A stretch of DNA of 20,550 bases. It comes from a virus. Positions 4,404 through 20,550 of this stretch are shown here, piece by piece. Made by a program: the position numbers and the translations under genes. Under the pieces are notes generated by a model. The model saw only the letters and a program-made list of their open reading frames with translations, searched no databases and had not been told where the DNA came from. Where the stretch lies: the IMG/VR virus record IMGVR_UViG_3300031999_002034, positions 1-20,550 of that record. The stretch is one strand, 5' to 3'. Positions within the stretch are counted from its first letter, which is position 1; every line of letters starts with the position of its first letter.

Positions 4404-7400
4404 TTATACCTGTACTGTTCTTGTTACTGAAGTGGCATTGTTGCCATACTTGATTAGATCATTGGTCATGATTGTCTTTAATTCCCTAGCAAGTACAGCC
4501 GCGTTCAAGTTAACTTGGAACGATGCTGTTATGTTTAAGTTTAGATTTGTTGATACTTCTGGTAATTTGGTTGATGCAGTTGAATCTCTAGCATATTTTG
4601 GAGTACCTGCACCAGCATCCATAAATCCTGATATACCTTTATAATTCTGACCTGGCAAAGTTCTTGGACCAAAGTCAGGACCACCCGCTGTCATAAACAT
4701 AGGATAACCTGCTGAAGTAATTGGTTTAGTTGCTGGAGGTACTGTTGATTTAGCTAATTCAGCCGCCCTAGCCGCTTCTTGCATAGCTTGTCTTGCCATT
4801 ACGTTTTCATCAAGAGTTATGTTAGCTGGAGTTCTAGGTGAATTTACACCAAGAGCAGTAGCTTCATTAGGAGTTAGTTTGGCGGCTTGTTCTGGAGTTG
4901 TAGTAGATCCACCTGGTCCAGCAGTCGTATTTGTATTCTTATTATAGTAACTACTTACAGCAGAGTAAGGCACCCAAAATGAAGCACCTTCTGGTAAGTT
5001 ATACATACCATCAACCATCTTCTTAGTATTCTCTGAGATTTCTGCTAATAGGGATTGGAAGATCCTCATATCGGTGTCTAGCCACATCATACCATCTTTA
5101 GCCATGATAACTTGTTGAGATTTCTCTTCTTTATAAGTTCCACCAGCGGCCGCGGCTGTAGCTTGTACCGAAGCTAATCTAGCTGGATACATTTGCTGAG
5201 CCTGTCTATACTGAGCCATTGTTAGTTCTTTATCTTGAGAGAAACCAGCGGGTTGTAATTTAAGTTTACCCTCTTCTTGAAGCTTCTGCATAGCATCATT
5301 TAGATAACTAGACTGTAGTTTAGTTACTTCTGTATAATCATCTTTAGTCTTTACTAAATACTTGATATTAGCATCTCTAGCTTCTGATGAGGCTTTTTCT
5401 TGTACAGTTAATTCGGATAAATCTTTATTATACATCTCCACAGCGGCATCTTTAACCATCTGGAACTGAGTAGATGTTAGATCTATCATAGAAACTATAT
5501 CTCTAATTGGCTTTCTTAGTTGGATGTTTCCAGCCTCGTTAGATACAGCCATATTATAAGTTTCTTTTTTACTAGCTAATTGAGCTTGAGCATCACTAAA
5601 TTTTACATCCTCACCGTTAACTTTAATAGTTGTATCTGGAGTAACAACACCAGATTGTTTAGCGGCATCAATCGCAGTAGATAAATCACCAATATCACCA
5701 GCTAGAGTTACTATTTCTGTAATTGCTTCTGTAGCACCACCTGCAAGAAGATCAGCAAAATCCTTTAGAGCTTTTGTCGTATCAGTTACATTTCCACTGA
5801 TTTGACCTGCGGCTACTAATGTAGGTAATTTATTCTGATAACCTTCAATCTCACCCATAGCTGTAGTATATTGTTTAACAGTCATAGGATTTTCAGCGAA
5901 GGGTTGCATTCTCTTCTTTAGATCTTCTCTAGATTGTGCTTGAATATTAGTTATATCTGTTGTACCTGTAGCTACAATGGCATTCTTTCTAGTATTGAAT
6001 GATCCATATTCACCTTCACCCTGAGTGACAATTTCTGGAGCCATGAATTTATCAAACTGAGCAGTTATTCTGGCACGTAAATTTTCTACGGCTTTTTTCT
6101 GTGCATCAGTAACTGGTTTCATTCCAGCACCACTTGAAGTTGGTTTACCCACTATATCCATATATTCAGGAGATTTTAGCATGGCCTCATTAATGGATGT
6201 TTGCCAAGGATCAGGAGCTTTAGTTATACCTACTTGAGATAGTATTCCAGGTACACCCATCTGCATTTCTTGGTTGAATTTACCTAACTTAGCTTGTTTA
6301 CTAACCTCTTCTGGAGCAATAGGAGTCCCTCCTGTTTGACCAAATAAACCTAATTTCTCCTCTTTTGTTAATTTAGCAACTTCATCTTCATATGTAGGAA
6401 TTTTTGGAGCTTTTTCAGGTGTAGCTGGTTGAGGTTTATATAAAGTATTTCTAGCGTCTGCTATAGCGCGATTCCATGCTTGAATAAAAATCTCGGCAAT
6501 AGAACCACCAATAGCCGCACCAATACCAGGTGCCGCACCTAATGCTTTACCAGCAAATTCAGCGGCAATAGAAGCACCACCGGCTATAGCAGCCTGACCA
6601 GGATGTCCTTGAACAGCATTACTATAAGCAAATAAACCTGCTGTCATTGCTCCTGGGGCCCAACTTGATACAAAATTTCCAGCCGCTTTTGCATTAGGAG
6701 CAAATTGATTAGCACCCTGAAGAGCCAACTGTCTTGAAGTTAATTCTACATTTCTTGTAGAGTAACCTTGTGTCATTCTTTCTTTTTGAATTAATGCTTC
6801 AGCGTCTTGTCTGTAGATGTCTTTATTTAGTGTACTTTCTAATCCAGATATAGCTCCTGTGGTAGCGGCACCAAGTTTGCTAGGTAATCCCAAACCTTTA
6901 GCAACCCCTGTAATAGCTAATATAGGTAAAGCTGTTCCTAGTAATTTAGCTACATTGTTTAATCCATTTACGGCTTTAGTAGAATTATTTGTTAAATCAG
7001 TTACAACTGCTAGTAGACCACCCTCTGTACCAAGAGTTTGAGCTAAACTTTGAAAAGCGTTTCCTAATATAATTGTAGCAGTTTCAACTGTAGCCATTTC
7101 AATAGCCAAGGCTTTTTCAGCCTCACCATTAGCTATAGCTGAAGCTTGTTCAGCAGTAGAAGCAGTTTTCTGACCAACTATAGCTGTAACAACCTGAGCC
7201 TGACGTCTGTTACCACCACCAATTGCTCTTGCTAAACTGTTTAGTTGATCTGGTGAAATAGCTCCACCCGCAATTCCAGATCTGATGTCAGTCATGATCT
7301 CTTTGAAAGTTCTAGCCTGACCTTGAGAATTTTGAACAGCAATACCAAATTTCTCTAATTGTTTTACAGCATCATTATTTGTAACACCTGTAATAATAGC

Positions 7401-10241
7401 TCTAACAGCATTACCAGTTTCTTTAGCAGAAGTAATACCGCTGGCCGCAACCGTAGCAATTAGACCATTAAGTTCATCAATACTTAAACCAGCATTATCC
7501 GCCGCCTCAGCTACGATAGCAAAGGAAGTAGCTAATGTATTAACATCAACGTTAGCGACCTTAGATACAGCTACCCACTTATCAAGTAAGGTAACACCCT
7601 CATCAATAGGAGTATTTGTTTGTCTTAAAGAAGCTACTAAGATATCAGTAGCGCTAGCTTGATCAATTTCAGCTAGTTTAGCAAGAGTAATGGAATCCTT
7701 AAGAATTACATTTGCTTTAGCATATCTTTCAGTAACACTTTGAATATCACCAGTAGCTCTATAGGCTTGGTTATATCCTTCTAGAACACCTGTAATAGAT
7801 TCACCAGTAGCATTAGCAACGGAAGCCGCACTACCAAAGATTTTATTAGTATCTTCTTGGGCGGCATTCATTGTAACCATAACATTGGCTAATTGAGATT
7901 GGTTTTCAATCGAAACTTTAACTAATTCTTGTAATTTTAATAGAGGAGTATAGACAATACTAACAGCGGCTGTCCACTTCAAGAATTCTAGAGAATTTTG
8001 TGCAATAGCTTTAGTAAAGTCAGCAGTTCTTCTAGTAGTCTCAGGAAGAATGTTTCCTTGAAGATCTGTTAGAATTCTTGTCTGAACTGGATTACCAGCC
8101 TGATCTTGTCTCTCTACATCAAAGATTTTTACATTATTTCTTTGTTTAACTTGTAAATCAGTAATAGCCCCCTTTTCCATATAGGCGGGATCTCTTTTAG
8201 CTAATTCTTTATAAACACTCGGATAACCTAATTGTTCAAATTCTGCTTGCTTTCTAGTAGCATATGTGGCATTATCAGCTATAGCTTTATTTTGTTTAGA
8301 ACTAGCGGCTATAACATCTTCTGGACCAATTTTACCTGTAGTTAAATCTTGAGCTACTGTATATTGTTTAACTGCACCAGAAGCATCCCTCATAGTAACA
8401 ACTAATCTAGTTAGATTGTCATTTAGATCAGTAGTTACCTTTGTAGTAGCTTGTATTTTAGAGTCAGTTAGGTCTGTAACCTTACCAAATTGTTCGGCCG
8501 CAGTAAATAATTCAGGATTATTAGCTTTTGTACTGGATCTCTGAGCAGAAGTCATACCCCAAGACTTGGAATCCCCACCACTTGGTTGTTGAGGAACTCC
8601 CCTACCGCCTGGATTATTTGTGCCAGGAGGGGGAGTTGTAGGAGTTACACCCTCATCTGGAGTTGCAGGTTGTTTCTTAGCTTCTTCTGCGGCGGCTTTA
8701 GCTTGGGCTTCAGACAAACGTTCTTTTGATCTCTTAAGTTTATCATCAACTTCTAGTTTACGAGCTTTTGCATTGTTATCATCTATCTCTTTCTTTTTTC
8801 TTTTATAGTCAGCATCTTCTGGACTATCAGGAGTAGCTTCGGCAGGTGGTTTTCTACCACCACCTCTACCACTCCCACCTCCACCGGCGGCTTGAGCTTT
8901 TAATTTATCATTAACAATCTGAGCTTGTTTATCAAACTCTTCTTGTATATTTTTTAGATCAGTATCAAAAGAGTCTACGGGAGCCTCAGCAGGAGCAGTA
9001 GCGGCTGGAGGAACTGGAGGTTTTGGAACAACTACTCTAGTTCTAGTAACATTTCTAACGCCAGGGGGCTCATCAAGATGACCTGTATGTGTAGTTTGAG
9101 ACTTACCCATTGTAACTTGTCCTGCTTGAATAGCAGTTAGTAATGATTCATCTGTAACAGGACCGCCAATCAGACCCTCAAGTCTAGTTAACATAGAGTT
9201 AGAGATTATATATTCATCACCATTTTCACCAACTTTAATTACTTTATTTCCTCTCACTCTACCTCCAGAGGCATAACCTTCTAAATATTTATTTCCATTA
9301 GCTATTTTAGGTAAAACCTTTTCTAAAGATGAACTAGAAGCTAGTCTTGAAATCATTGGACCGGTTTTTCTGCTCAATGCACCCCTTTTTTCTAGAACAT
9401 TTATAAGTTTATCTGTTAATTCTTTTGGATATTTAGAAGGAGTACCATTAATATATTGTGATACAACTCTAGCTCCAGTTTCTTCTGGATCTGACCAGTA
9501 ATATAGATAATCTTTATCTTCAAAAGTCATATCTTTAGGTAGTGTTGGTCTTATTAAATCATGAGCTGTTTTGGATAGTTCTTCTAATATTGGTTTAACT
9601 TCTGGATCGTCTACATATGGAAATAACATTTTATGACCAAACTCATGTGCTATACTATTTTTAGCTTCTGGTGATGATTGTTGTAAATATTTAGGACCAA
9701 TAAGTATTGAATTAGGAGAGGATGCGGCACCAGAATCATTTCTAGTTACTTCAAAACCTATATCAATAGGACCACCATATTTTTTATTTATTAAGGTAGA
9801 TATAGCAGGGTCTGGATTATTAGTATTTTTTTTCCATTCTTCATTTATATTTTTTTGCATTGTCATAATAACATCACGTGTATTACTAACATTGCTTATA
9901 GCTTTTTTAAAGTTATTAATATGATCTAAGGCAATAACTCTAGTAAGTCCTAACTGTGGATCATTATTTTGTTCTACGAGTTGTTTAACATTATCAAGAG
10001 CATTACTAACTTTATTTAAAGATCCATATACATCTCTAAATCTAGGACTGTTAACAAAAGCATCCTTTTCTTGAAACGTATTATTTTCCCATATTTTAGA
10101 TGTATCCCAAAAATAAGCGGCAAATTTGTTTAGCTCAGGTGTATTACCAGTTACTTTACTTATCCTTCTTATTTCTGTTTTTACATCTTCTATATCCATA
10201 CCTGCATGGTTAGCTATAAGTTGTCCAATAGTAAATGACAT
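4404..10241 (-). CDS. Tail tape measure protein with N-terminal zincin-like domain
   Basis: 1945 aa, the largest gene here. Residues 1-150 are helical. Residues 150-265 hold HEFGH (199-203) and DPEETGAR (251-258), a zinc-metallopeptidase-like module. Residues 326-351 carry a GGRV...VGENGDEYI motif common in tape measures. Residues 388-475 and 525-560 are Pro/Gly-rich linkers around a charged coiled coil (about 476-525). Residues 745-1110 form the TP901-type tape measure core, with alternating Ala/Asn-rich helices and the AADNAGLSIDELNGLIA block. Residues 1185-1257 are Ala/Gly-rich and hydrophobic, possibly membrane-interacting. The C-terminus is beta-like. The ATG at 10241 sits one base after the chaperone stop codon and has a GGGAGATATAGG Shine-Dalgarno. 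The protein sets tail length and leaves the tube during DNA ejection. The core call is firm; the peptidase activity is unproven. Confidence 0.95.
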   Translation of the reverse strand: MSFTIGQLIANHAGMDIEDVKTEIRRISKVTGNTPELNKFAAYFWDTSKIWENNTFQEKDAFVNSPRFRDVYGSLNKVSNALDNVKQLVEQNNDPQLGLTRVIALDHINNFKKAISNVSNTRDVIMTMQKNINEEWKKNTNNPDPAISTLINKKYGGPIDIGFEVTRNDSGAASSPNSILIGPKYLQQSSPEAKNSIAHEFGHKMLFPYVDDPEVKPILEELSKTAHDLIRPTLPKDMTFEDKDYLYYWSDPEETGARVVSQYINGTPSKYPKELTDKLINVLEKRGALSRKTGPMISRLASSSSLEKVLPKIANGNKYLEGYASGGRVRGNKVIKVGENGDEYIISNSMLTRLEGLIGGPVTDESLLTAIQAGQVTMGKSQTTHTGHLDEPPGVRNVTRTRVVVPKPPVPPAATAPAEAPVDSFDTDLKNIQEEFDKQAQIVNDKLKAQAAGGGGSGRGGGRKPPAEATPDSPEDADYKRKKKEIDDNNAKARKLEVDDKLKRSKERLSEAQAKAAAEEAKKQPATPDEGVTPTTPPPGTNNPGGRGVPQQPSGGDSKSWGMTSAQRSSTKANNPELFTAAEQFGKVTDLTDSKIQATTKVTTDLNDNLTRLVVTMRDASGAVKQYTVAQDLTTGKIGPEDVIAASSKQNKAIADNATYATRKQAEFEQLGYPSVYKELAKRDPAYMEKGAITDLQVKQRNNVKIFDVERQDQAGNPVQTRILTDLQGNILPETTRRTADFTKAIAQNSLEFLKWTAAVSIVYTPLLKLQELVKVSIENQSQLANVMVTMNAAQEDTNKIFGSAASVANATGESITGVLEGYNQAYRATGDIQSVTERYAKANVILKDSITLAKLAEIDQASATDILVASLRQTNTPIDEGVTLLDKWVAVSKVANVDVNTLATSFAIVAEAADNAGLSIDELNGLIATVAASGITSAKETGNAVRAIITGVTNNDAVKQLEKFGIAVQNSQGQARTFKEIMTDIRSGIAGGAISPDQLNSLARAIGGGNRRQAQVVTAIVGQKTASTAEQASAIANGEAEKALAIEMATVETATIILGNAFQSLAQTLGTEGGLLAVVTDLTNNSTKAVNGLNNVAKLLGTALPILAITGVAKGLGLPSKLGAATTGAISGLESTLNKDIYRQDAEALIQKERMTQGYSTRNVELTSRQLALQGANQFAPNAKAAGNFVSSWAPGAMTAGLFAYSNAVQGHPGQAAIAGGASIAAEFAGKALGAAPGIGAAIGGSIAEIFIQAWNRAIADARNTLYKPQPATPEKAPKIPTYEDEVAKLTKEEKLGLFGQTGGTPIAPEEVSKQAKLGKFNQEMQMGVPGILSQVGITKAPDPWQTSINEAMLKSPEYMDIVGKPTSSGAGMKPVTDAQKKAVENLRARITAQFDKFMAPEIVTQGEGEYGSFNTRKNAIVATGTTDITNIQAQSREDLKKRMQPFAENPMTVKQYTTAMGEIEGYQNKLPTLVAAGQISGNVTDTTKALKDFADLLAGGATEAITEIVTLAGDIGDLSTAIDAAKQSGVVTPDTTIKVNGEDVKFSDAQAQLASKKETYNMAVSNEAGNIQLRKPIRDIVSMIDLTSTQFQMVKDAAVEMYNKDLSELTVQEKASSEARDANIKYLVKTKDDYTEVTKLQSSYLNDAMQKLQEEGKLKLQPAGFSQDKELTMAQYRQAQQMYPARLASVQATAAAAGGTYKEEKSQQVIMAKDGMMWLDTDMRIFQSLLAEISENTKKMVDGMYNLPEGASFWVPYSAVSSYYNKNTNTTAGPGGSTTTPEQAAKLTPNEATALGVNSPRTPANITLDENVMARQAMQEAARAAELAKSTVPPATKPITSAGYPMFMTAGGPDFGPRTLPGQNYKGISGFMDAGAGTPKYARDSTASTKLPEVSTNLNLNITASFQVNLNAAVLARELKTIMTNDLIKYGNNATSVTRTVQV
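9447..9794 (-). other. Zincin-like metallopeptidase domain within the tape measure protein
   Basis: This segment encodes residues 150-265 of the tape measure protein. The HExxH zinc motif is AHEFGHKM, with H199, E200 and H203 encoded at 9633-9647. It is preceded by a short strand and the SPEAKNSI helix, as in zincins. About 50 residues later DPEETGARVVSQYI offers E253 or E254 as a third ligand, and resembles the PEE-x-x-AR helix that follows HExxH in several phage-borne metallopeptidase domains. That all three elements occur in order supports a folded gluzincin rather than a chance HExxH. The substrate is unknown: self-processing of the tape measure, or a host envelope or cytoplasmic target, are both possible. 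Confidence 0.7.
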
Positions 10242-10242
10242 A

Positions 10243-10536
10243 TTATCCTATATCTCCCTCGTCAATTTCAAACTCGACGCTGTTTTGACTCTTTTTATTT
10301 CCAACTGCATTATCAATCCACTCTTCTAAATCTTCAGATCGTCCGTACCATATCAATCTCTCAGGTGGTCGTTTCTCTTTACTGAGTTCTGAAAGACTAT
10401 CTACTTGTTGATTCTTTCTAATCACATAGGAGATAGTATATGGGATATCTCTAATCTCTTGAATTCTATTATCTATAGGGATTCGTAATGTTTTTGAAAT
10501 TGACCACAAACTTCCAATCGCATTACTCCTGGCTAT
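10243..10536 (-). CDS. Frameshift extension of the tail assembly chaperone (T part of G-T)
   Basis: This -1 frame continues from the end of the 238-aa chaperone ORF and stops (TAA) one base before the tape measure ATG. Read by frameshift from the A AAA AAA heptamer it adds 97 residues, starting IARSNAIGS and ending EIDEGDIG, and gives a fusion of about 335 aa. There is no good independent start: the first usable codon in the frame is a TTG at 10509 with only a weak upstream purine run. The extension is charged and hydrophilic, with a WYGRSEDLEEWID segment. In lambda-type phages the G-T fusion recruits tube protein to the tape measure. Position, size and slippery site all fit that role, although the sequence itself is not diagnostic. 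Confidence 0.8.
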   Translation of the reverse strand: MARSNAIGSLWSISKTLRIPIDNRIQEIRDIPYTISYVIRKNQQVDSLSELSKEKRPPERLIWYGRSEDLEEWIDNAVGNKKSQNSVEFEIDEGDIG

Positions 10537-11249
10537 TTTTTTAGAGTAATCATATCTACTTCAAGTGAAGTATAGAACTCTCTGATCTGTCTTTTAATAA
10601 ATGATGGAATGTTTTCATACTCTTCTTGTGAAGAGAAATACTTTTCTGTAAGGGCTTCATCTTTGTAAGCCCCGAAATATGTACAATAATCTACGAAGCG
10701 ATCATACATTTCAGCTTCGCAAAGTTCATTGATAAGATCTTCTAAATAGATAGCATAAACTTCTTCATCAGTCTTTTGACTGATCGTCTTCTTTATGTTC
10801 TCTAATCTCTTATCAACCTCTGCTTGAATAGCGCCTCTCATCTTATCTGGATAAGCATCTATCTCTGCTTGATGCTTCTCTAGAATTTCTTGTGGAGCAT
10901 CTGAAGCGGGTTCCTTTGGAACCGGAACTTGAATATCCTGAGCAACTTCTTTATAAATGTTCTTACTATTTACATATAGAATATAAGCTTCTATTTTTGG
11001 TCTTCCTAGAGTTTCAAATTCAGGGACATAACCAACTCGTTCATCTGAATTTATGTCTAGGAGTTTCTTACGAAGTTCGGATGCTTTTCTAAGCGCCATA
11101 ATTCTAGCTCTATTCATTTCAGCATCACCCACAATTCTAAGATAAATAATATCTAGAACTTCTTTGGCGGGGGAAAGCAATTCAAACTTATCAAACCAAG
11201 TAAATAGTTTACTTATATCAATGTCGTTTTTTTCGAGTGAATATGTCAT
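10533..11249 (-). CDS. Tail assembly chaperone (G-like, zero-frame product)
   Basis: 238 aa, acidic and strongly helical, starting MTYSLEKND. The ATG at 11249 has an AAGGAG Shine-Dalgarno (GTAAGGAGATTATATG). The C-terminal half, from about residue 155 (KTDEEVYAIYLEDLINEL) through YDRFVDYCTYFGAY, looks like an all-helical chaperone domain. The function is assigned from context: it sits between the major tail protein and the tape measure gene and ends in a slippery A-run feeding a second frame. In lambda the G and G-T proteins bind the tape measure and tube subunits and are absent from the virion. The family cannot be named from the sequence alone because these chaperones diverge quickly. Confidence 0.82.
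   Translation of the reverse strand: MTYSLEKNDIDISKLFTWFDKFELLSPAKEVLDIIYLRIVGDAEMNRARIMALRKASELRKKLLDINSDERVGYVPEFETLGRPKIEAYILYVNSKNIYKEVAQDIQVPVPKEPASDAPQEILEKHQAEIDAYPDKMRGAIQAEVDKRLENIKKTISQKTDEEVYAIYLEDLINELCEAEMYDRFVDYCTYFGAYKDEALTEKYFSSQEEYENIPSFIKRQIREFYTSLEVDMITLKK
10536..10542 (-). promoter_or_regulatory. Slippery heptamer A AAA AAA for -1 programmed frameshift
   Basis: On the minus strand the 3' end of the chaperone ORF reads CTA AAA AAA TAG. The heptamer lies exactly in the X XXY YYZ phase (zero frame CT-A AAA AAA), immediately before the zero-frame stop at 10533-10535. Slippage by -1 continues as ATA GCC AGG AGT into the frame ending at 10243. The position, between the tube and tape measure genes, is where tailed phages conserve this event. 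No clear downstream pseudoknot or stem was found; the adjacent stop codon may itself promote pausing. Confidence 0.85.
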
Positions 11250-14981: not shown

Positions 14982-15413
14982 TTATTCTTCTTTTAATCCT
15001 AAAACTATTCTATTGAGACTTTGAACTCCTCTTGGTGTTTTATTAGCTATAGCTAATTTAATACCATCAACTTCTACATTATCCGCACCCTCTATAATGT
15101 TATAGTTATCGACAGTATATTCAACTTGAATTCTACAATCATAAGCTTTCCATTGACCTCCCTCTGACCATTGTAAAATTTCAGAAGGATTCCAAGTTAT
15201 ATGTGCTTTCATAGAAGTACCGCTAAGAGTTGTAAGCCAACCCACTCCACTACAAACTACACAAAAAGGATTTGTAGATTCATTTGTTACTGGATTTATA
15301 GTGCAGGCGGGACAATCTTCTAACACTTCTGTATAGAAGATTACGTCCCTACCTATTGCATTTCTAATATCATCAATTATTAACTTCGTGTTTGTCGGCC
15401 AAGTTATTCCCAT
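14982..15413 (-). CDS. Head-tail connector-like protein with four-cysteine zinc site
   Basis: 143 aa. C34-PA-C37 and C51-VV-C54, separated by N-x-E-S-T-N-PF and followed by SGVGW, form a rubredoxin-like knuckle pair. A C-x2-C ... ST-N-x-F-C-x2-C-x-G-x-G pattern of this kind occurs in a class of phage neck/head-closure proteins. The remainder is beta-rich (AHITWNPSE, CRIQVEYTVD). It probably seals the portal-tail junction, judged by its neighbours. The ATG at 15413 has an AAGAGG site, and the first 41 bases lie inside the 3' end of the glycosyltransferase gene in another frame. Confidence 0.6.
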   Translation of the reverse strand: MGITWPTNTKLIIDDIRNAIGRDVIFYTEVLEDCPACTINPVTNESTNPFCVVCSGVGWLTTLSGTSMKAHITWNPSEILQWSEGGQWKAYDCRIQVEYTVDNYNIIEGADNVEVDGIKLAIANKTPRGVQSLNRIVLGLKEE

Positions 15414-17547
15414 TTAGTGCCTCTTGAAACAAACCATGCCAAATACCTGCGATATTCTTCCAGCTATATTGGGGGCTTGTAAATAATTTATATGATCTTA
15501 ATGCTAAAGTTTTATACAGAACTTTATCTGTATAAGCTGTCTCTAAAGCTTGAGCTACATCTTCTGGTTTAACCAGTCCACCTTCAGTCATGATATCATC
15601 TTGAGTGTAGTCCATTGTCACTGGAATTAGCAAACCACATTCAGAGAAAAGTTCCCTACAGGCTGAGTGATCTGGTACTATTTGTAAAGCTCCAGTACAA
15701 GCATGTTCAACATTACAGTTATGTACTACATATCCATTTGCAATATATGAGTGGTCTTCCTCTACTTCCAAGTCATATACATGACCTAGACCATAGGGTT
15801 CAACTCTTAGTACTTTAGCATATGCTAAAGTATCTAGATCCATAATTCTAAATGAACAGAAATATCCCTTACCATTCTCTCTCATTCTGCATTCAAATCT
15901 ATAATTATTGATTGATAATTGATGAACAATAAAAGAGCTAGTACTATTAGAAAATGTTGCAAAGAATTTTCCAGCAATTTCTTTTCTTGATTTATTTAGA
16001 AGAAAACTTTCTAAAACATTCTTCATAGAATGACTAAACCAACTAATAGGAACCTTTCTAGTTCTAAGTTTTGAACCAAAATTATTCAAGAAGAATTTAA
16101 CATAAGTCTTATCTGTAGTATCAACAACGGGTCTATGTCTTAGATCAAATGTAATATTAGATGTAACACCCAATCTTCTAAATTTATTTACTATCTGTTG
16201 GGCATCATTTTCTGTACGGGTTCTGATTGTTAGTTTACCCTTTTTTATTTTACCTGATGCTAGATATTGACCTACAATAATACCAAGATCTTCATCCATG
16301 TCTACATGTCTTTTATACATTCTAGGGAGAATTCTATCTTCTCTTCTCCAAACAAAATCATCATTACACAAAAGATCTCTATCCTCAGCTAGATCGACAA
16401 CCAGTGATTCTTGATTTACCTTTGGTTTAAAAACCTTTACAACATCTAAGTTTGTAAGGTCTTTGGCCTTTTTCCACCCATCAAGAGTCATAAGCAAATG
16501 CTCAGGTGTGCATTTCAATTCCCTTCTATTTTGAAAAGTGATCTTTACTAGATCCTTTATACCATTATCGAATACATTGATTACTTTCTTAATCTCTCCA
16601 GTATGTGTAACTGTTCTGTCTCCTACCTGCATATCTTTAATACGTTTGATACCATCAACAGACCAAATTGGGGTGTTTTCTTCTAAACATAAACCCCAAC
16701 CTTCTCCTAGAGAAGTATTAATTCCTATATCTGCTGAATTATAAATTTCATTCATCTTGAAAATAGGAACCTGTTGAGGTCCAGCATTTCTAGTGGTAAC
16801 AACATACTTATTAGCTATGCCTAATCTATGAGCCATGATAGAAGTATTTATAGCCGCATCAACCACACCGGAGTGCATATATAAAACTGCATCATCCTTA
16901 TTCTCTGCAAACATTGCAAAGCCTTTCATAGTGATATCTAATCTCTTTCTAGGTTGATTTCTATTAGCATTCAAGACAATAAACTTATCCATATATGTAT
17001 CTGGATCTTTCTTGAATACTCTCTTTCTGGCTTCCATTTTATCCATTCTAAAGAAATCATTAGTTTCTACACCATGTGGTATTACTGAGAATTGAATATC
17101 AGGTCTGGCTTTTGAAGCTACATCCAATCCGAACTTAGTGTAAGTTACGGGGAAGACCTTATCAAAGTGAGCATACCATTCAGAGTTATGTTCTTTAGAA
17201 TCTACTGGAAAGTAAACAAACGTAGCGGGGATTTCCCCGTTTTCATACAAACTAATCAATGCTTCAAGGAATTGATTTAAATTCCATGCATCACCCAAAG
17301 CTAAAATGATTTCTGGTTTAGCTATGGTCAAGATCTCTTGTAATCTATTCAAACCTAATAGATCTCCATGAGAGTCAGCGGGATATATCTTATACGGATA
17401 GCTGTGGGGATCACCATGATAATTTACTCCGATCCAATAAATATCATACATATCCTGCGGAAGATTGTCAACAATTGAATGTAAAACTTTTGAGAAACCA
17501 GTTGCAACGACCGCGTCTCCCCAAACTAATAACCTTGCCTTATTCAT
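15373..17547 (-). CDS. GT4-type glycosyltransferase precursor containing an intein
   Basis: 724-aa precursor. Residues 1-286 plus 611-724 make a 400-aa GT-B fold glycosyltransferase, the normal length for the group. The N-terminal Rossmann half starts LLVWGDAVVATGFSKVLHSI; the C-terminal half has NRNQPRKRLD (196-204) and, once spliced, the EX7E motif E282-GWGL-CNV-E614 that binds the nucleotide-sugar. Residues 287-610 are an intein placed inside that motif, so splicing is needed for activity. Related GT4 enzymes occur among structural genes of many phages and are thought to modify virion proteins or host polymers; donor and acceptor here are unknown. The ATG at 17547 has an AAAGGAGAGG site. 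The gene lies between adaptor and connector genes and overlaps the latter by 41 bases. Confidence 0.92.
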   Translation of the reverse strand: MNKARLLVWGDAVVATGFSKVLHSIVDNLPQDMYDIYWIGVNYHGDPHSYPYKIYPADSHGDLLGLNRLQEILTIAKPEIILALGDAWNLNQFLEALISLYENGEIPATFVYFPVDSKEHNSEWYAHFDKVFPVTYTKFGLDVASKARPDIQFSVIPHGVETNDFFRMDKMEARKRVFKKDPDTYMDKFIVLNANRNQPRKRLDITMKGFAMFAENKDDAVLYMHSGVVDAAINTSIMAHRLGIANKYVVTTRNAGPQQVPIFKMNEIYNSADIGINTSLGEGWGLCLEENTPIWSVDGIKRIKDMQVGDRTVTHTGEIKKVINVFDNGIKDLVKITFQNRRELKCTPEHLLMTLDGWKKAKDLTNLDVVKVFKPKVNQESLVVDLAEDRDLLCNDDFVWRREDRILPRMYKRHVDMDEDLGIIVGQYLASGKIKKGKLTIRTRTENDAQQIVNKFRRLGVTSNITFDLRHRPVVDTTDKTYVKFFLNNFGSKLRTRKVPISWFSHSMKNVLESFLLNKSRKEIAGKFFATFSNSTSSFIVHQLSINNYRFECRMRENGKGYFCSFRIMDLDTLAYAKVLRVEPYGLGHVYDLEVEEDHSYIANGYVVHNCNVEHACTGALQIVPDHSACRELFSECGLLIPVTMDYTQDDIMTEGGLVKPEDVAQALETAYTDKVLYKTLALRSYKLFTSPQYSWKNIAGIWHGLFQEALNGNNLADKHEVNN
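15718..16689 (-). mobile_element. Intein (Hint domain with degenerate LAGLIDADG-type insert)
   Basis: 324 residues (287-610 of the precursor). Block A begins C287-LEENTPIWSVDG. Block B has T347-PE-H350. Block F has VYDLEVEEDHSYIANG, with D592 and H599. The junction is H609-N610, followed by C611 as the +1 nucleophile. All splicing residues are present, so it should be active. Residues about 418-545 (15913-16296) resemble a two-motif homing endonuclease, but the first motif reads LGIIVGQYLASG with Ser431 where the catalytic acid belongs, and the second candidate (VLESFLLNKSR) has no acid-glycine. Homing activity is therefore probably lost. Flanking exteins rejoin cleanly as GEGWGL-CNVEHAC. Confidence 0.95.
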
Positions 17548-18392: not shown

Positions 18393-19406
18393 TTATGGTA
18401 ATTTACTATTGATTTGCTTTAGAAGTTCGTTATTCTCTAATTCTAATGCATATATATTGTCTAGTGTAGCCATATCCTCTGGAGGAACTTCAGCACTAGG
18501 GGATGGTGATGGACTATTTTCTGGTTTATCTGGATCATCTTGTTGCCATCTACCTGATGCAAATACTGTATCCATTGGAACTAGCATAGTATCTAGATCT
18601 ACATTATGAGGAACGGTCATTGAAGATTCACTATAGATGCCAGGAAGTCTAACATTATCAGTTAGCTGTAGCATTTCAGGTGGTTTATTACCAACCCATT
18701 TAGGATTGTAAGCGACGCTTTTTACAATGTTTGTAACTTCTGACCACTGTTTGAATTGTCCCTTTGTCTGAGTATATACTGGTGTAGTATAATCAGCTAA
18801 CCACTGAATTCTATAATGTAGATATGAATCCAATGATGGAGAATATGCATCAACAAACCATTTACCAGTGTAGATCCAGATGGGAACGGTTAATAGTTTT
18901 CCATTAGCCTGATCCTCTTCAATTCTATTAAAGAGATCTGCGGCACTATCTCTAATCCAAATATCAGGAATCTTTTTGATAACAGAAGGATTAGTATTTT
19001 TGTTTTTATAGTAATCATTATAAGACATCCACCATCTTTCTACATCAATACAGATAGCATGGTATGTTTTATTCTTCAAAGCTTGTCTTAGAGCTAACAT
19101 TTGAGGATCAACATCATTTGGATATTTAACATGATTTGTTAATTGAGAAGCATAGAATAACATTTTATATGCTGGATTATCAAAGATATATGCACATGCG
19201 GGAATGTTTTTGTTATATGCAATCTGTACCCAATTACTTAGATAGGTTGGATCAGTACAGAACATGTCTACACTTTCTTTTGAATTCCAATTGAAAACTC
19301 TGTCATCTACTTCTACTGCTTTGAAACCTAACCATTTTAGACCTAAAAGTTCAGACTCTTTTAGATAAGGCTCATAAGAGCTAATATCAATTCCGACTTC
19401 TTTCAT
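18393..19406 (-). CDS. GH25-type muramidase (lysozyme) with Pro-Ser linker
   Basis: 337 aa. The GH25 barrel landmarks are in order: GIDISSYEP with D7, AICIDVERWW with the catalytic D121-x-E123 pair, VPIWIYTGKWF at 174-184, QWLADY at 201-206 and VDLDTM at 269-274. GH25 enzymes cleave the MurNAc-GlcNAc bond of peptidoglycan. There is no signal peptide. After the barrel come a PSPSPS linker (about 299-304) and a short C-terminal helix (ALELENNELLKQI) in place of the usual wall-binding repeats. It starts one base after the stop of the serine-rich gene with a GGAGGAG site, and precedes neck genes rather than a holin, so it may be a virion-associated lysin or fibre part as well as, or instead of, the endolysin. 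Confidence 0.85.
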   Translation of the reverse strand: MKEVGIDISSYEPYLKESELLGLKWLGFKAVEVDDRVFNWNSKESVDMFCTDPTYLSNWVQIAYNKNIPACAYIFDNPAYKMLFYASQLTNHVKYPNDVDPQMLALRQALKNKTYHAICIDVERWWMSYNDYYKNKNTNPSVIKKIPDIWIRDSAADLFNRIEEDQANGKLLTVPIWIYTGKWFVDAYSPSLDSYLHYRIQWLADYTTPVYTQTKGQFKQWSEVTNIVKSVAYNPKWVGNKPPEMLQLTDNVRLPGIYSESSMTVPHNVDLDTMLVPMDTVFASGRWQQDDPDKPENSPSPSPSAEVPPEDMATLDNIYALELENNELLKQINSKLP

Positions 19407-19407
19407 T

Positions 19408-20550
19408 TTACTCCTCCACTTTTCCTGTTTGTAAATTTACTACTATATAATCCCCTGTTAGGATTACTATAGTAAGATCATCAGATAAATTAATTATACT
19501 ATAATCATCGTCTAATATTATAATCTCTGTGGTTGCATCAATCCTGTCTTCGGGTGGGGGTGATGGTGAAGGTGAAGAACTAGGACTTAATGATTGGCTC
19601 TCGCTTGGGCTAACACTTCTTGAGGTGCTGGCACTTGGAGATAGACTTGGACTTTCTGATCTACTTTCACTTGAACTTTCACTAGGTGAAAGGGAAGCAC
19701 TTGGTGATAGACTTGGACTCTCACTAGTTGAAACTGATGGGCTTGTACTTACTGAAGGACTTCTACTTGTACTTTCAGAAGAGCTTTGGCTAATAGAAGG
19801 TGAAGCACTCTTACTTTCAGAAGGAGAAACCGATGGGCTTACACTTGCGCTAGTACTTGGAGAAACGGAAGTTGAGGGGCTTATACTTGGTGAAGCACTA
19901 GTACTAGGACTCTTACTAGGAGATTCTGAACTGCTTGGTGAAATGCTTGGTGATTCAGAAGGACTTACTGATGGTGAAACGCTAGGACTAATACTTGGTG
20001 AAACTGAAGCACTTGAACTTGGGCTAACGCTAGTGCTTGGTGATAGTGATTTACTAACACTTGGACTAACCGAAGGACTTACTGATGGGCTTACTGAAGA
20101 ACTTCCTAGTGGTGCAGTTGATGGACTTGCACTTGAGCTTGGTGATAATGAAGGTGAAGCACTAGGTGAAGTAGATGAGCTTGCTGAAGGAGAAACACTT
20201 CTGCTTGCAGAAGGGCTTACACTACTTGATGGACTTAAACTTGGGCTAACCGAAGCACTTGGAGATACTGAATTGCTAACACTAGGAGAAACACTTGGTG
20301 AAACCGATTTACTAGCACTACTTGATGGTGATATACTTGGACTTTGACTTGGTGAAGTTGAAGGTGAAGTTGAAGAACTAGGTGATTGTGATCTACTTTC
20401 ACTTGGACTTACTGATGGACTGATAGATGAACTAGCGCTAGGACTTACACTATTTGAAGGCGAAACTGATGGGCTAACTGATGGTGAAGCACTTGGGGAT
20501 ACACTAGAGCTAGGGCTTACTGAGGGTGAATTACTAGGAGAAACACTTGA
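19408..20550 (-). CDS. Ser-Pro-rich repeat protein, probably virion surface (5' end outside window)
   Basis: 380 codons are visible before the TAA at 19408-19410; the start lies beyond the right edge. The first 330 visible residues are a lattice with serine at every second position and mostly Pro, Val, Ala, Thr, Glu or Ser between (SPSVSPSAS style). The last 50 residues (PPPEDRIDATTEIIILDDD...) alternate acidic and hydrophobic residues, probably beta strands. Freshwater and environmental phages often carry SPSxS proteins of unknown function. The extended chain would be an unfolded or polyproline-like stalk and a likely substrate for O-glycosylation or phosphorylation. The long leucine-rich frame on the opposite strand is only its antisense. 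Coding is certain from the frame-preserving pattern; the function is inferred. Confidence 0.85.
   Translation of the reverse strand, partial: SSVSPSNSPSVSPSSSVSPSASPSVSPSVSPSNSVSPSASSSISPSVSPSESRSQSPSSSTSPSTSPSQSPSISPSSSASKSVSPSVSPSVSNSVSPSASVSPSLSPSSSVSPSASRSVSPSASSSTSPSASPSLSPSSSASPSTAPLGSSSVSPSVSPSVSPSVSKSLSPSTSVSPSSSASVSPSISPSVSPSVSPSESPSISPSSSESPSKSPSTSASPSISPSTSVSPSTSASVSPSVSPSESKSASPSISQSSSESTSRSPSVSTSPSVSTSESPSLSPSASLSPSESSSESRSESPSLSPSASTSRSVSPSESQSLSPSSSPSPSPPPEDRIDATTEIIILDDDYSIINLSDDLTIVILTGDYIVVNLQTGKVEE
19561..20550 (-). repeat. Ser-x dipeptide repeat tract (about 165 units)
   Basis: Ser occupies every second residue through all visible repeats, in unbroken phase. The only interruption is Thr-Ala-Pro-Leu-Gly at 20104-20118, where two serine positions are lost but the phase continues. 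Serine codons mix AGT, AGC, TCA, TCT and TCG freely, so the DNA is not a simple tandem repeat. The tract continues past the right edge. Confidence 0.92.

What the first reader, a model, noticed from the sequence alone, without database searches (positions are those of the whole stretch)
9447..9794. Zincin-like metallopeptidase embedded in a tape measure protein
The N-terminal region has HEFGH and a downstream DPEETGAR helix spaced like a gluzincin, and is connected to the tape measure core by long Pro/Gly linkers. Tape measures are known to carry peptidoglycan hydrolases; a zinc protease of this kind is much less familiar. It could process the tape measure after assembly or act on a host protein after ejection.
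Basis: partly seen in the sequence, partly recalled or inferred. Interest (0 to 1): 0.65.

Follow-up and report, generated by a model that had tools for sequence, protein, structure and literature searches.

The report
Zinc-protease domain on phage tape measure
The front end of this phage's tail-length ruler protein carries an extra domain that looks like a zinc protease, an optional attachment found in only a few related phages and probably carried into the host with the DNA; its activity and target have not been shown.

Summary
The 1,945-residue tape measure protein (window 4404-10241, minus strand) has HEFGH at residues 199-203 and a downstream Glu (E254, in DPEETGAR) in an N-terminal extension, upstream of a clear TP901-type tape-measure core. 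Among 56 distinct related tape measures, 3 have HExxH in this extension (0.024 expected by shuffling; 0 of 5000 shuffles reach 3), each followed by an ExxA motif 43, 55 or 89 residues on. No HExxH occurs in the rest of any of these tape measures. An AlphaFold model of residues 145-300 (3 sequences) is confident over residues ~194-289; its best structural matches are the catalytic domain of a HExxH zinc protease (lethal factor, 678-773; Z 5.5, 3.1 A, 80 residues), apparently in register. Foldseek alone gives nothing significant. The rest of the tape keeps its usual length, so the domain is an accessory module. Most likely it is a zincin metallopeptidase ejected with the tape, acting on a host protein or releasing itself. 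Zincins in injected phage proteins, and enzymes fused to tape measures, are both known; I did not find this combination described. Catalysis and target are inferred.

The parts
4404..10241 (-). Tape measure protein gene, 1,945 aa
   Evidence: TIGR01760 E 2.5e-21, PF10145 E 3.2e-17, PHROG tape measure families
9822..10241 (-). N-terminal helical region, residues 1-140, upstream of the zincin
   Evidence: Predicted mostly helical in the single-sequence model, low to moderate confidence
9342..9809 (-). Zincin-like metallopeptidase domain, residues 145-300 (helical half ~194-289 modelled with confidence; expected beta part 145-186 not)
   Evidence: Model me6bceefdfa7b, pLDDT 83-96 over ~194-289; VIA-align to LF catalytic domain Z 5.5 and 5.2, same match from a separate model
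9633..9647 (-). HEFGH, residues 199-203, predicted Zn ligands H199 and H203 and general base E200
   Evidence: Sequence; HEFTH in L002 and HEMGH in L006 at the equivalent place
9468..9491 (-). DPEETGAR, residues 251-258; E254 is the predicted third zinc ligand
   Evidence: E254 aligns with E308 of L002 (PNEIIAR); ExxA motif at spacing 55 (L002 89, L006 43)
9195..9269 (-). GGRVRG...VGENGDEYI motif, residues ~325-349, of a kind usually seen near the C-terminus of other tape measures
   Evidence: Weak match to phrog_167 positions 1408-1441 of 1555, E 0.002
8562..9044 (-). Pro/Gly-rich linkers and a charged helical stretch, residues ~400-560
   Evidence: Sequence
6900..7940 (-). Conserved TP901-type tape-measure core, residues 768-1114
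   Evidence: TIGR01760; 54% identical to L002 and 52% to L009 over the core

Best explanation
The N-terminal extension of this siphophage tape measure holds a zincin-like zinc metallopeptidase domain (two His of HEFGH plus E254 holding zinc, E200 as base), of the lethal-factor / polyvalent-protein kind. It is an optional cargo module: the ruler part of the protein is unchanged without it. It is packed in the tail with the tape, tethered by flexible linkers, and leaves with the tape on infection; its most likely job is to cut a protein in the host (envelope, defence or takeover target), perhaps after cutting itself free. Shown here by computation: position, motif, recurrence, partial fold, accessory distribution. 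Inferred: zinc binding, protease activity, ejection, and the host target.
For: HExxH and downstream ExxA in 3 of 56 distinct tape-measure N-termini, against 0.024 expected. The Glu half of the domain is homologous between window and L002 (local score 52 against 30 +/- 5 in shuffles, 0 of 400 reach it). Model confident over residues ~194-289, with its top two structural matches both the LF catalytic domain 678-773 on model 47-143; the first aligned residues put model H55 (TMP H199) at 686, the LF zinc ligand as I recall it. A separate model of 1-366 gave the same match, 191-287 on 678-773, Z 5.5, 2.8 A. PF13688 (M12 metallopeptidase) matched below its cut-off, E 1.1e-4, ending on HEFGH. Accessory: core-to-C-terminus is 1,206 residues here and 1,124-1,359 in the family, while the N-terminal part is 739 against a median of 341; L009 aligns from its residue 119 with window residue 556 onward and has no such domain. 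The domain evolves much faster than the core (about 23-30% against 54% identity window to L002), as expected of a part that meets a host target. Precedents: an RNA polymerase fused to the N-terminus of the P23-45 tape measure (PMC10770324) and zincins in injected phage proteins (PMC5512222).
Against: No activity data. Foldseek itself gives no significant match and Z 5.5 is modest. The beta-sheet half expected before the HExxH helix was not modelled with confidence. Only three members, with L006 only weakly similar to the window (score 37, shuffle frequency 0.05). In phage 80alpha the tape N-terminus sits at the neck (PMC11661146), so the domain would leave last and must pass or unfold in a narrow tube. 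Nothing identifies a target.
Confidence: 0.5

Rival explanations
1. Maturation protease: the zincin cuts the tape measure itself during or after tail assembly (removing its own N-terminal arm or another segment), and has no host target.
For: Tape measures of T5 and lambda are cleaved in morphogenesis (PMC10038345), and zincins in polyvalent proteins have been proposed to self-process, e.g. P1 DdrB (PMC5512222). Flexible Pro/Gly linkers next to the domain are possible cut sites.
Against: 53 of 56 distinct related tape measures have no HExxH in the N-terminal part, so tape processing in this family cannot depend on this domain unless it only removes itself. No cleavage site is evident.
Confidence: 0.3
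2. Envelope penetration enzyme: the domain cuts a surface protein layer or the peptide part of the wall to let the tail through, like tape-measure wall hydrolases but of another fold.
For: T5 pb2 carries a muralytic metallopeptidase motif (PMC10038345). Two tail-tube relatives lie in contigs binned as Parcubacteria and Bathyarchaeota, groups whose envelopes may include S-layers (own knowledge).
Against: Wall-cutting activity would be expected near the C-terminus, which leaves first; here the domain is N-terminal. HExxH zincins are not the usual wall-peptide cutting families (M23, M15). The binning of those contigs may be contamination and says nothing certain of the window's host.
Confidence: 0.12
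3. Dead or structural zincin: the fold is kept as a packing or assembly module without catalysis.
For: For one contractile-injection effector, Cgo1, growth inhibition was reported independent of the DUF4157 metalloprotease motif (PMC11297309); the N4 zincin region is needed for encapsidation (PMC5512222).
Against: HExxH and the ExxA glutamate are kept in all three domains although the rest has diverged.
Confidence: 0.06
4. Not a zincin: a chance HExxH in a helical N-terminal arm.
For: Foldseek gives no significant match; no Pfam, PHROG or NCBIfam family reaches its cut-off for this region.
Against: Recurrence far above chance at the same place, homology with L002 including both motifs and LF-type match in two models.
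Confidence: 0.04

Closest known systems
Zincin-like MPTase domains of phage and plasmid polyvalent proteins (PMC5512222)
   Same: HExxH on one helix and a Glu on a following helix, variable insert between them, embedded in a very large virion protein expected to be injected; linked by those authors to the lethal-factor endopeptidase fold
   Different: Here the carrier is a siphophage tail tape measure, not a head-packaged or conjugated polyvalent protein; no ArdC, RNA polymerase or other partner domain; clade membership not tested
Lethal-factor catalytic domain (MEROPS M34) and Pro-Pro endopeptidases
   Same: Top structural match over both catalytic helices; HEFGH-type motif; HExxH-to-Glu spacing of 55 close to 49 in LF (LF numbering from memory)
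   Different: 15-20% identity only, beta half not modelled, no sequence-level match, different protein context and no sign of a role outside a phage tail
Thermus phage P23-45 tape measure gp96 with N-terminal RNA polymerase (PMC10770324)
   Same: A folded enzyme fused to the N-terminus of a tape measure and thought to be delivered with it; that tape measure is also said to contain a metallopeptidase domain
   Different: Its N-terminal cargo is an RNA polymerase; the nature of its metallopeptidase domain is not stated in the text read
T5 pb2 C-terminal metallopeptidase motif (PMC10038345)
   Same: A metallopeptidase motif within a tape measure, released by cleavage
   Different: C-terminal, muralytic, ejected first; here N-terminal HExxH zincin
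DUF4157 domains of contractile injection system effectors (PMC11297309, PMC13277306)
   Same: HExxH domain on cargo of a phage-tail-like particle, in some cases on tape-measure-related effectors
   Different: No Pfam match to DUF4157 here; phage tail rather than an injection system; function of DUF4157 itself unsettled
Mycobacteriophage Omega gp18 (PMC3706429)
   Same: Phage protein with an LF-like zinc-binding half
   Different: Stand-alone 170-residue protein in the left arm, not fused to the tape measure

Membership tests
Siphophage tape measure protein (TP901 type) | TIGR01760 / PF10145 core above curated cut-off | tested here: met
   76.1 bits against cut-off 28.8; 63.5 against 33.2
Siphophage tape measure protein (TP901 type) | Place in the tail operon: tube, two chaperones with frameshift, tape, distal tail and hub genes | tested here: met
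   Order in window and L002 identical; -1 slippery A7 and conserved KKIARSNAI extension
Zincin-like MPTase of polyvalent proteins / LF type | HExxH on a helix | tested here: met
   HEFGH 199-203 inside model helix 47-65 = TMP 191-209
Zincin-like MPTase of polyvalent proteins / LF type | Glu ligand on a following helix | tested here: met
   E254 in model helix 108-121 = TMP 252-265; conserved in L002. Metal geometry itself not measured
Zincin-like MPTase of polyvalent proteins / LF type | Three-stranded sheet and N-terminal helix before the HExxH helix | tested here: inconclusive
   Model residues 1-42 (TMP 145-186) have pLDDT under 50; a helix at 2-11 and two single bridge residues only
Zincin-like MPTase of polyvalent proteins / LF type | Significant match in fold search | tested here: inconclusive
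   Top VIA-align rows are LF, Z 5.5 and 5.2, but Foldseek E-values are above 1
LF / PPEP family (M34) | Profile or sequence match | tested here: inconclusive
   No Pfam hit to such a family; PDB sequence searches empty; divergence too high for a negative to count
Metzincins (M12, Reprolysin_5) | Third His ligand, HExxHxxGxxH | tested here: not met
   Sequence is HEFGHKMLFPY; PF13688 hit below its cut-off, 23.0 against 27 bits
DUF4157 (contractile injection effectors) | Pfam profile match | tested here: inconclusive
   No match at E up to 1; weak matches are dropped by the filters
Any zinc metallopeptidase | Zinc binding and proteolysis | not testable with these tools
   Needs protein biochemistry

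The most novel reading that the evidence does not exclude
A class of siphophages uses the head-proximal end of the tape measure as a delivery arm for a protease effector of the lethal-factor type that cuts a specific host protein during DNA entry, swapped in and out between phages while the ruler stays the same.
Probability: 0.35. Interest if true: 0.75.

Novelty: new variant of a known kind. Interest (0 to 1): 0.5.

Why it matters
If right, the tape measure is not only a ruler and a pore: its head-proximal end would be a fusion site for optional enzymes, with a protease as a second kind beside the RNA polymerase of P23-45. That would make a delivered phage protease directly testable (wild type against E200A) in a tail already known to be ejected, and would give a clean comparison of related phages with and without the domain.

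Tried and rejected
Close-relative searches of the domain itself found nothing: viral contigs, phage records by tblastn with the window, L002 and L006 domains, so relatives were reached through the tail-tube protein instead and the tape core. PDB sequence searches were empty or chance. Foldseek of both models was not significant; the single-sequence model was poor overall (pLDDT 52). Considered and rejected: metzincin (no third His); wall hydrolase of the M23 kind (wrong motif); HExxH in glycosyltransferases of relatives (HEYKH and the like), taken as chance since no Glu helix follows and they sit in unrelated proteins. A degenerate zincin in the other long N-termini (L037, L038, L024, L087) was looked for with the three-sequence profile and not found, though the profile is weak. 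MAFFT on the whole N-termini misaligned the motifs, so domain-length segments were used.

Full report
What is there. The window is a 20,550-base viral record with a tail operon on the minus strand. The finding lies in a 1,945-residue ORF, 4404-10241. Residues 768-1114 match the TP901-type tape measure model TIGR01760 (E 2.5e-21), with PF10145 and several PHROG tape measure families agreeing. HEFGH is residues 199-203 and DPEETGAR residues 251-258. The linkers between this part and the core are rich in Pro and Gly, about residues 400-560.

Is it more than chance. Direct searches for relatives of the N-terminal domain failed. Going through the tail-tube protein gave first one contig, L002, then ten loci, then 80 loci, plus two from genome bins. 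Tape measures with a recognisable core were found in 63 of these loci; with the window and after removing near-duplicates, 56 distinct N-termini. HExxH occurs in three of them: window HEFGH, L002 HEFTH, L006/L005 HEMGH. Shuffling residues within each N-terminus gives 0.024 on average and never 3 in 5000 trials; all three also have an ExxA motif further on, and no tape measure has HExxH in the rest of its sequence. The spacing from the first His to that Glu is 55 (window), 89 (L002, with an insert just after the HExxH helix) and 43 (L006).

Homology of the domains. Window and L002 are similar over the Glu-bearing half (score 52, shuffles 30 +/- 5, 0 of 400 reach it). Window and L006 are only marginally similar (score 37, shuffle frequency 0.05), so L006 may be a very diverged or a separately acquired domain. 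The tape core, by contrast, is 54% identical between window and L002 and 44% between window and L006. A profile from the three domains found no further copy, stand-alone or fused, in any ORF of the fetched loci.

Fold. A single-sequence model of residues 1-366 was poor (mean pLDDT 52). A model of residues 145-300 from the three-sequence alignment A8 was much better: pTM 0.63, pLDDT 83-96 over about residues 194-289. HEFGH lies in the helix 191-209 and E254 in the helix 252-265. With VIA-align the top two of 541 chains are lethal factor entries, chain residues 678-773 on model 47-143, Z 5.5 and 5.2, 3.1-3.2 A over 80 residues; the next, unrelated, row has Z 4.2. The start of the aligned range puts H199 on residue 686, which I recall as the first zinc-binding His of that enzyme. 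The separate single-sequence model gave the same match at 191-287 on 678-773 (Z 5.5, 2.8 A, 77 residues, 20% identity), although there it ranked 46th among unrelated helical matches to another part. Foldseek scores are not significant. The tools give no coordinates, so the distance between the three ligands was not measured. The sheet expected before the HExxH helix (residues 145-186) was not modelled with confidence. I take the zincin identity as likely, about 0.85, not proven.

Which zincin. It is not a metzincin: the Reprolysin_5 hit (E 1.1e-4, below its cut-off) ends at HEFGH and the third His is missing. The layout, HExxH on one helix and Glu on a later helix with a variable insert between them, is the one described for zincin-like MPTases of polyvalent proteins, which those authors tie to lethal-factor endopeptidase (PMC5512222). 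Clade membership was not testable here.

Accessory module. From the start of the core to the C-terminus, complete tape measures of this family span 1,124-1,359 residues (window 1,206); the part before the core is 739 in the window, 858 in L002 and 554 in L006, against a median of 341. L009 aligns with window residues 556-1945 from its own residue 119 and has no such domain. So the ruler is unchanged and the zincin is added on top, in only a few phages.

Mechanism. In phage 80alpha the tape N-terminus is at the neck and the C-terminus in the baseplate (PMC11661146); T5 ejects its C-terminal part first (PMC10038345). The zincin would then sit at the head end and leave last, next to the DNA, as proposed for the RNA polymerase fused to the N-terminus of the P23-45 tape measure (PMC10770324). 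Because most relatives do without it, an obligatory role in tape maturation is unlikely; an optional role after ejection fits better, and the fast divergence fits a changing host target. Self-release by cutting its own linker is compatible with that and is the main rival. Every step after the fold is inference.

Known or new. Zincins in injected phage proteins are known, enzymes in tape measures are known (wall hydrolases, T5 metallopeptidase motif, P23-45 polymerase), and HExxH DUF4157 domains occur on contractile injection cargo, some of it related to tape measures (PMC11297309, PMC13277306). In the papers I could search I found no HExxH zincin described at the N-terminus of a siphophage tape measure, but the library is open-access only. 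P23-45 gp96 is said to contain a metallopeptidase domain whose kind the text read does not state. I file this as a new variant of a known kind.

Noticed in passing
window 10243-11249 (-), slippery site about 10535-10542: The two tail assembly chaperone ORFs are probably joined by a -1 frameshift: an A7 run at the end of the first ORF and a conserved KKIARSNAI extension in the -1 frame, in both the window and L002; the TTG-started second ORF is not a separate gene.
   Followed up: partly
window 15373-17547 (-), intein about 15718-16689: A glycosyltransferase gene is interrupted by an intein (Intein_splicing E 3.4e-17) with a LAGLIDADG-like stretch; the L002 orthologue of about 406 aa has none.
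   Followed up: partly
window 19408-20550 (-): At least 380 residues of Ser-Pro-rich repeats (SPSVSPSVSPSAS...), open at the window edge; the reverse strand also stays open by composition.
   Followed up: no
window 18393-19406 (-): A 337-aa protein beginning GIDISSYEPY, with CIDVERWW and PIWIYTGKWF, looks like a GH25-type lysozyme fold by eye; no Pfam match to one.
   Followed up: no
window 9195-9269 (-): A GGRVRG...VGENGDEYI motif just after the zincin, of a kind usually near the C-terminus of other tape measures (phrog_167, E 0.002); VGExG occurs in the N-terminal parts of only a few relatives. It may mark where a piece of another tape measure was joined.
   Followed up: partly
L037 12313-15147, also L087, L024, L038: Other tape measures of the family have N-terminal extensions of 559-943 residues without HExxH and without a clear Pfam domain; they may carry other cargo.
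   Followed up: partly
L087, L088: Relatives of the tail-tube protein sit in contigs binned as Candidatus Parcubacteria and Candidatus Bathyarchaeota; a possible host hint or a binning error.
   Followed up: no
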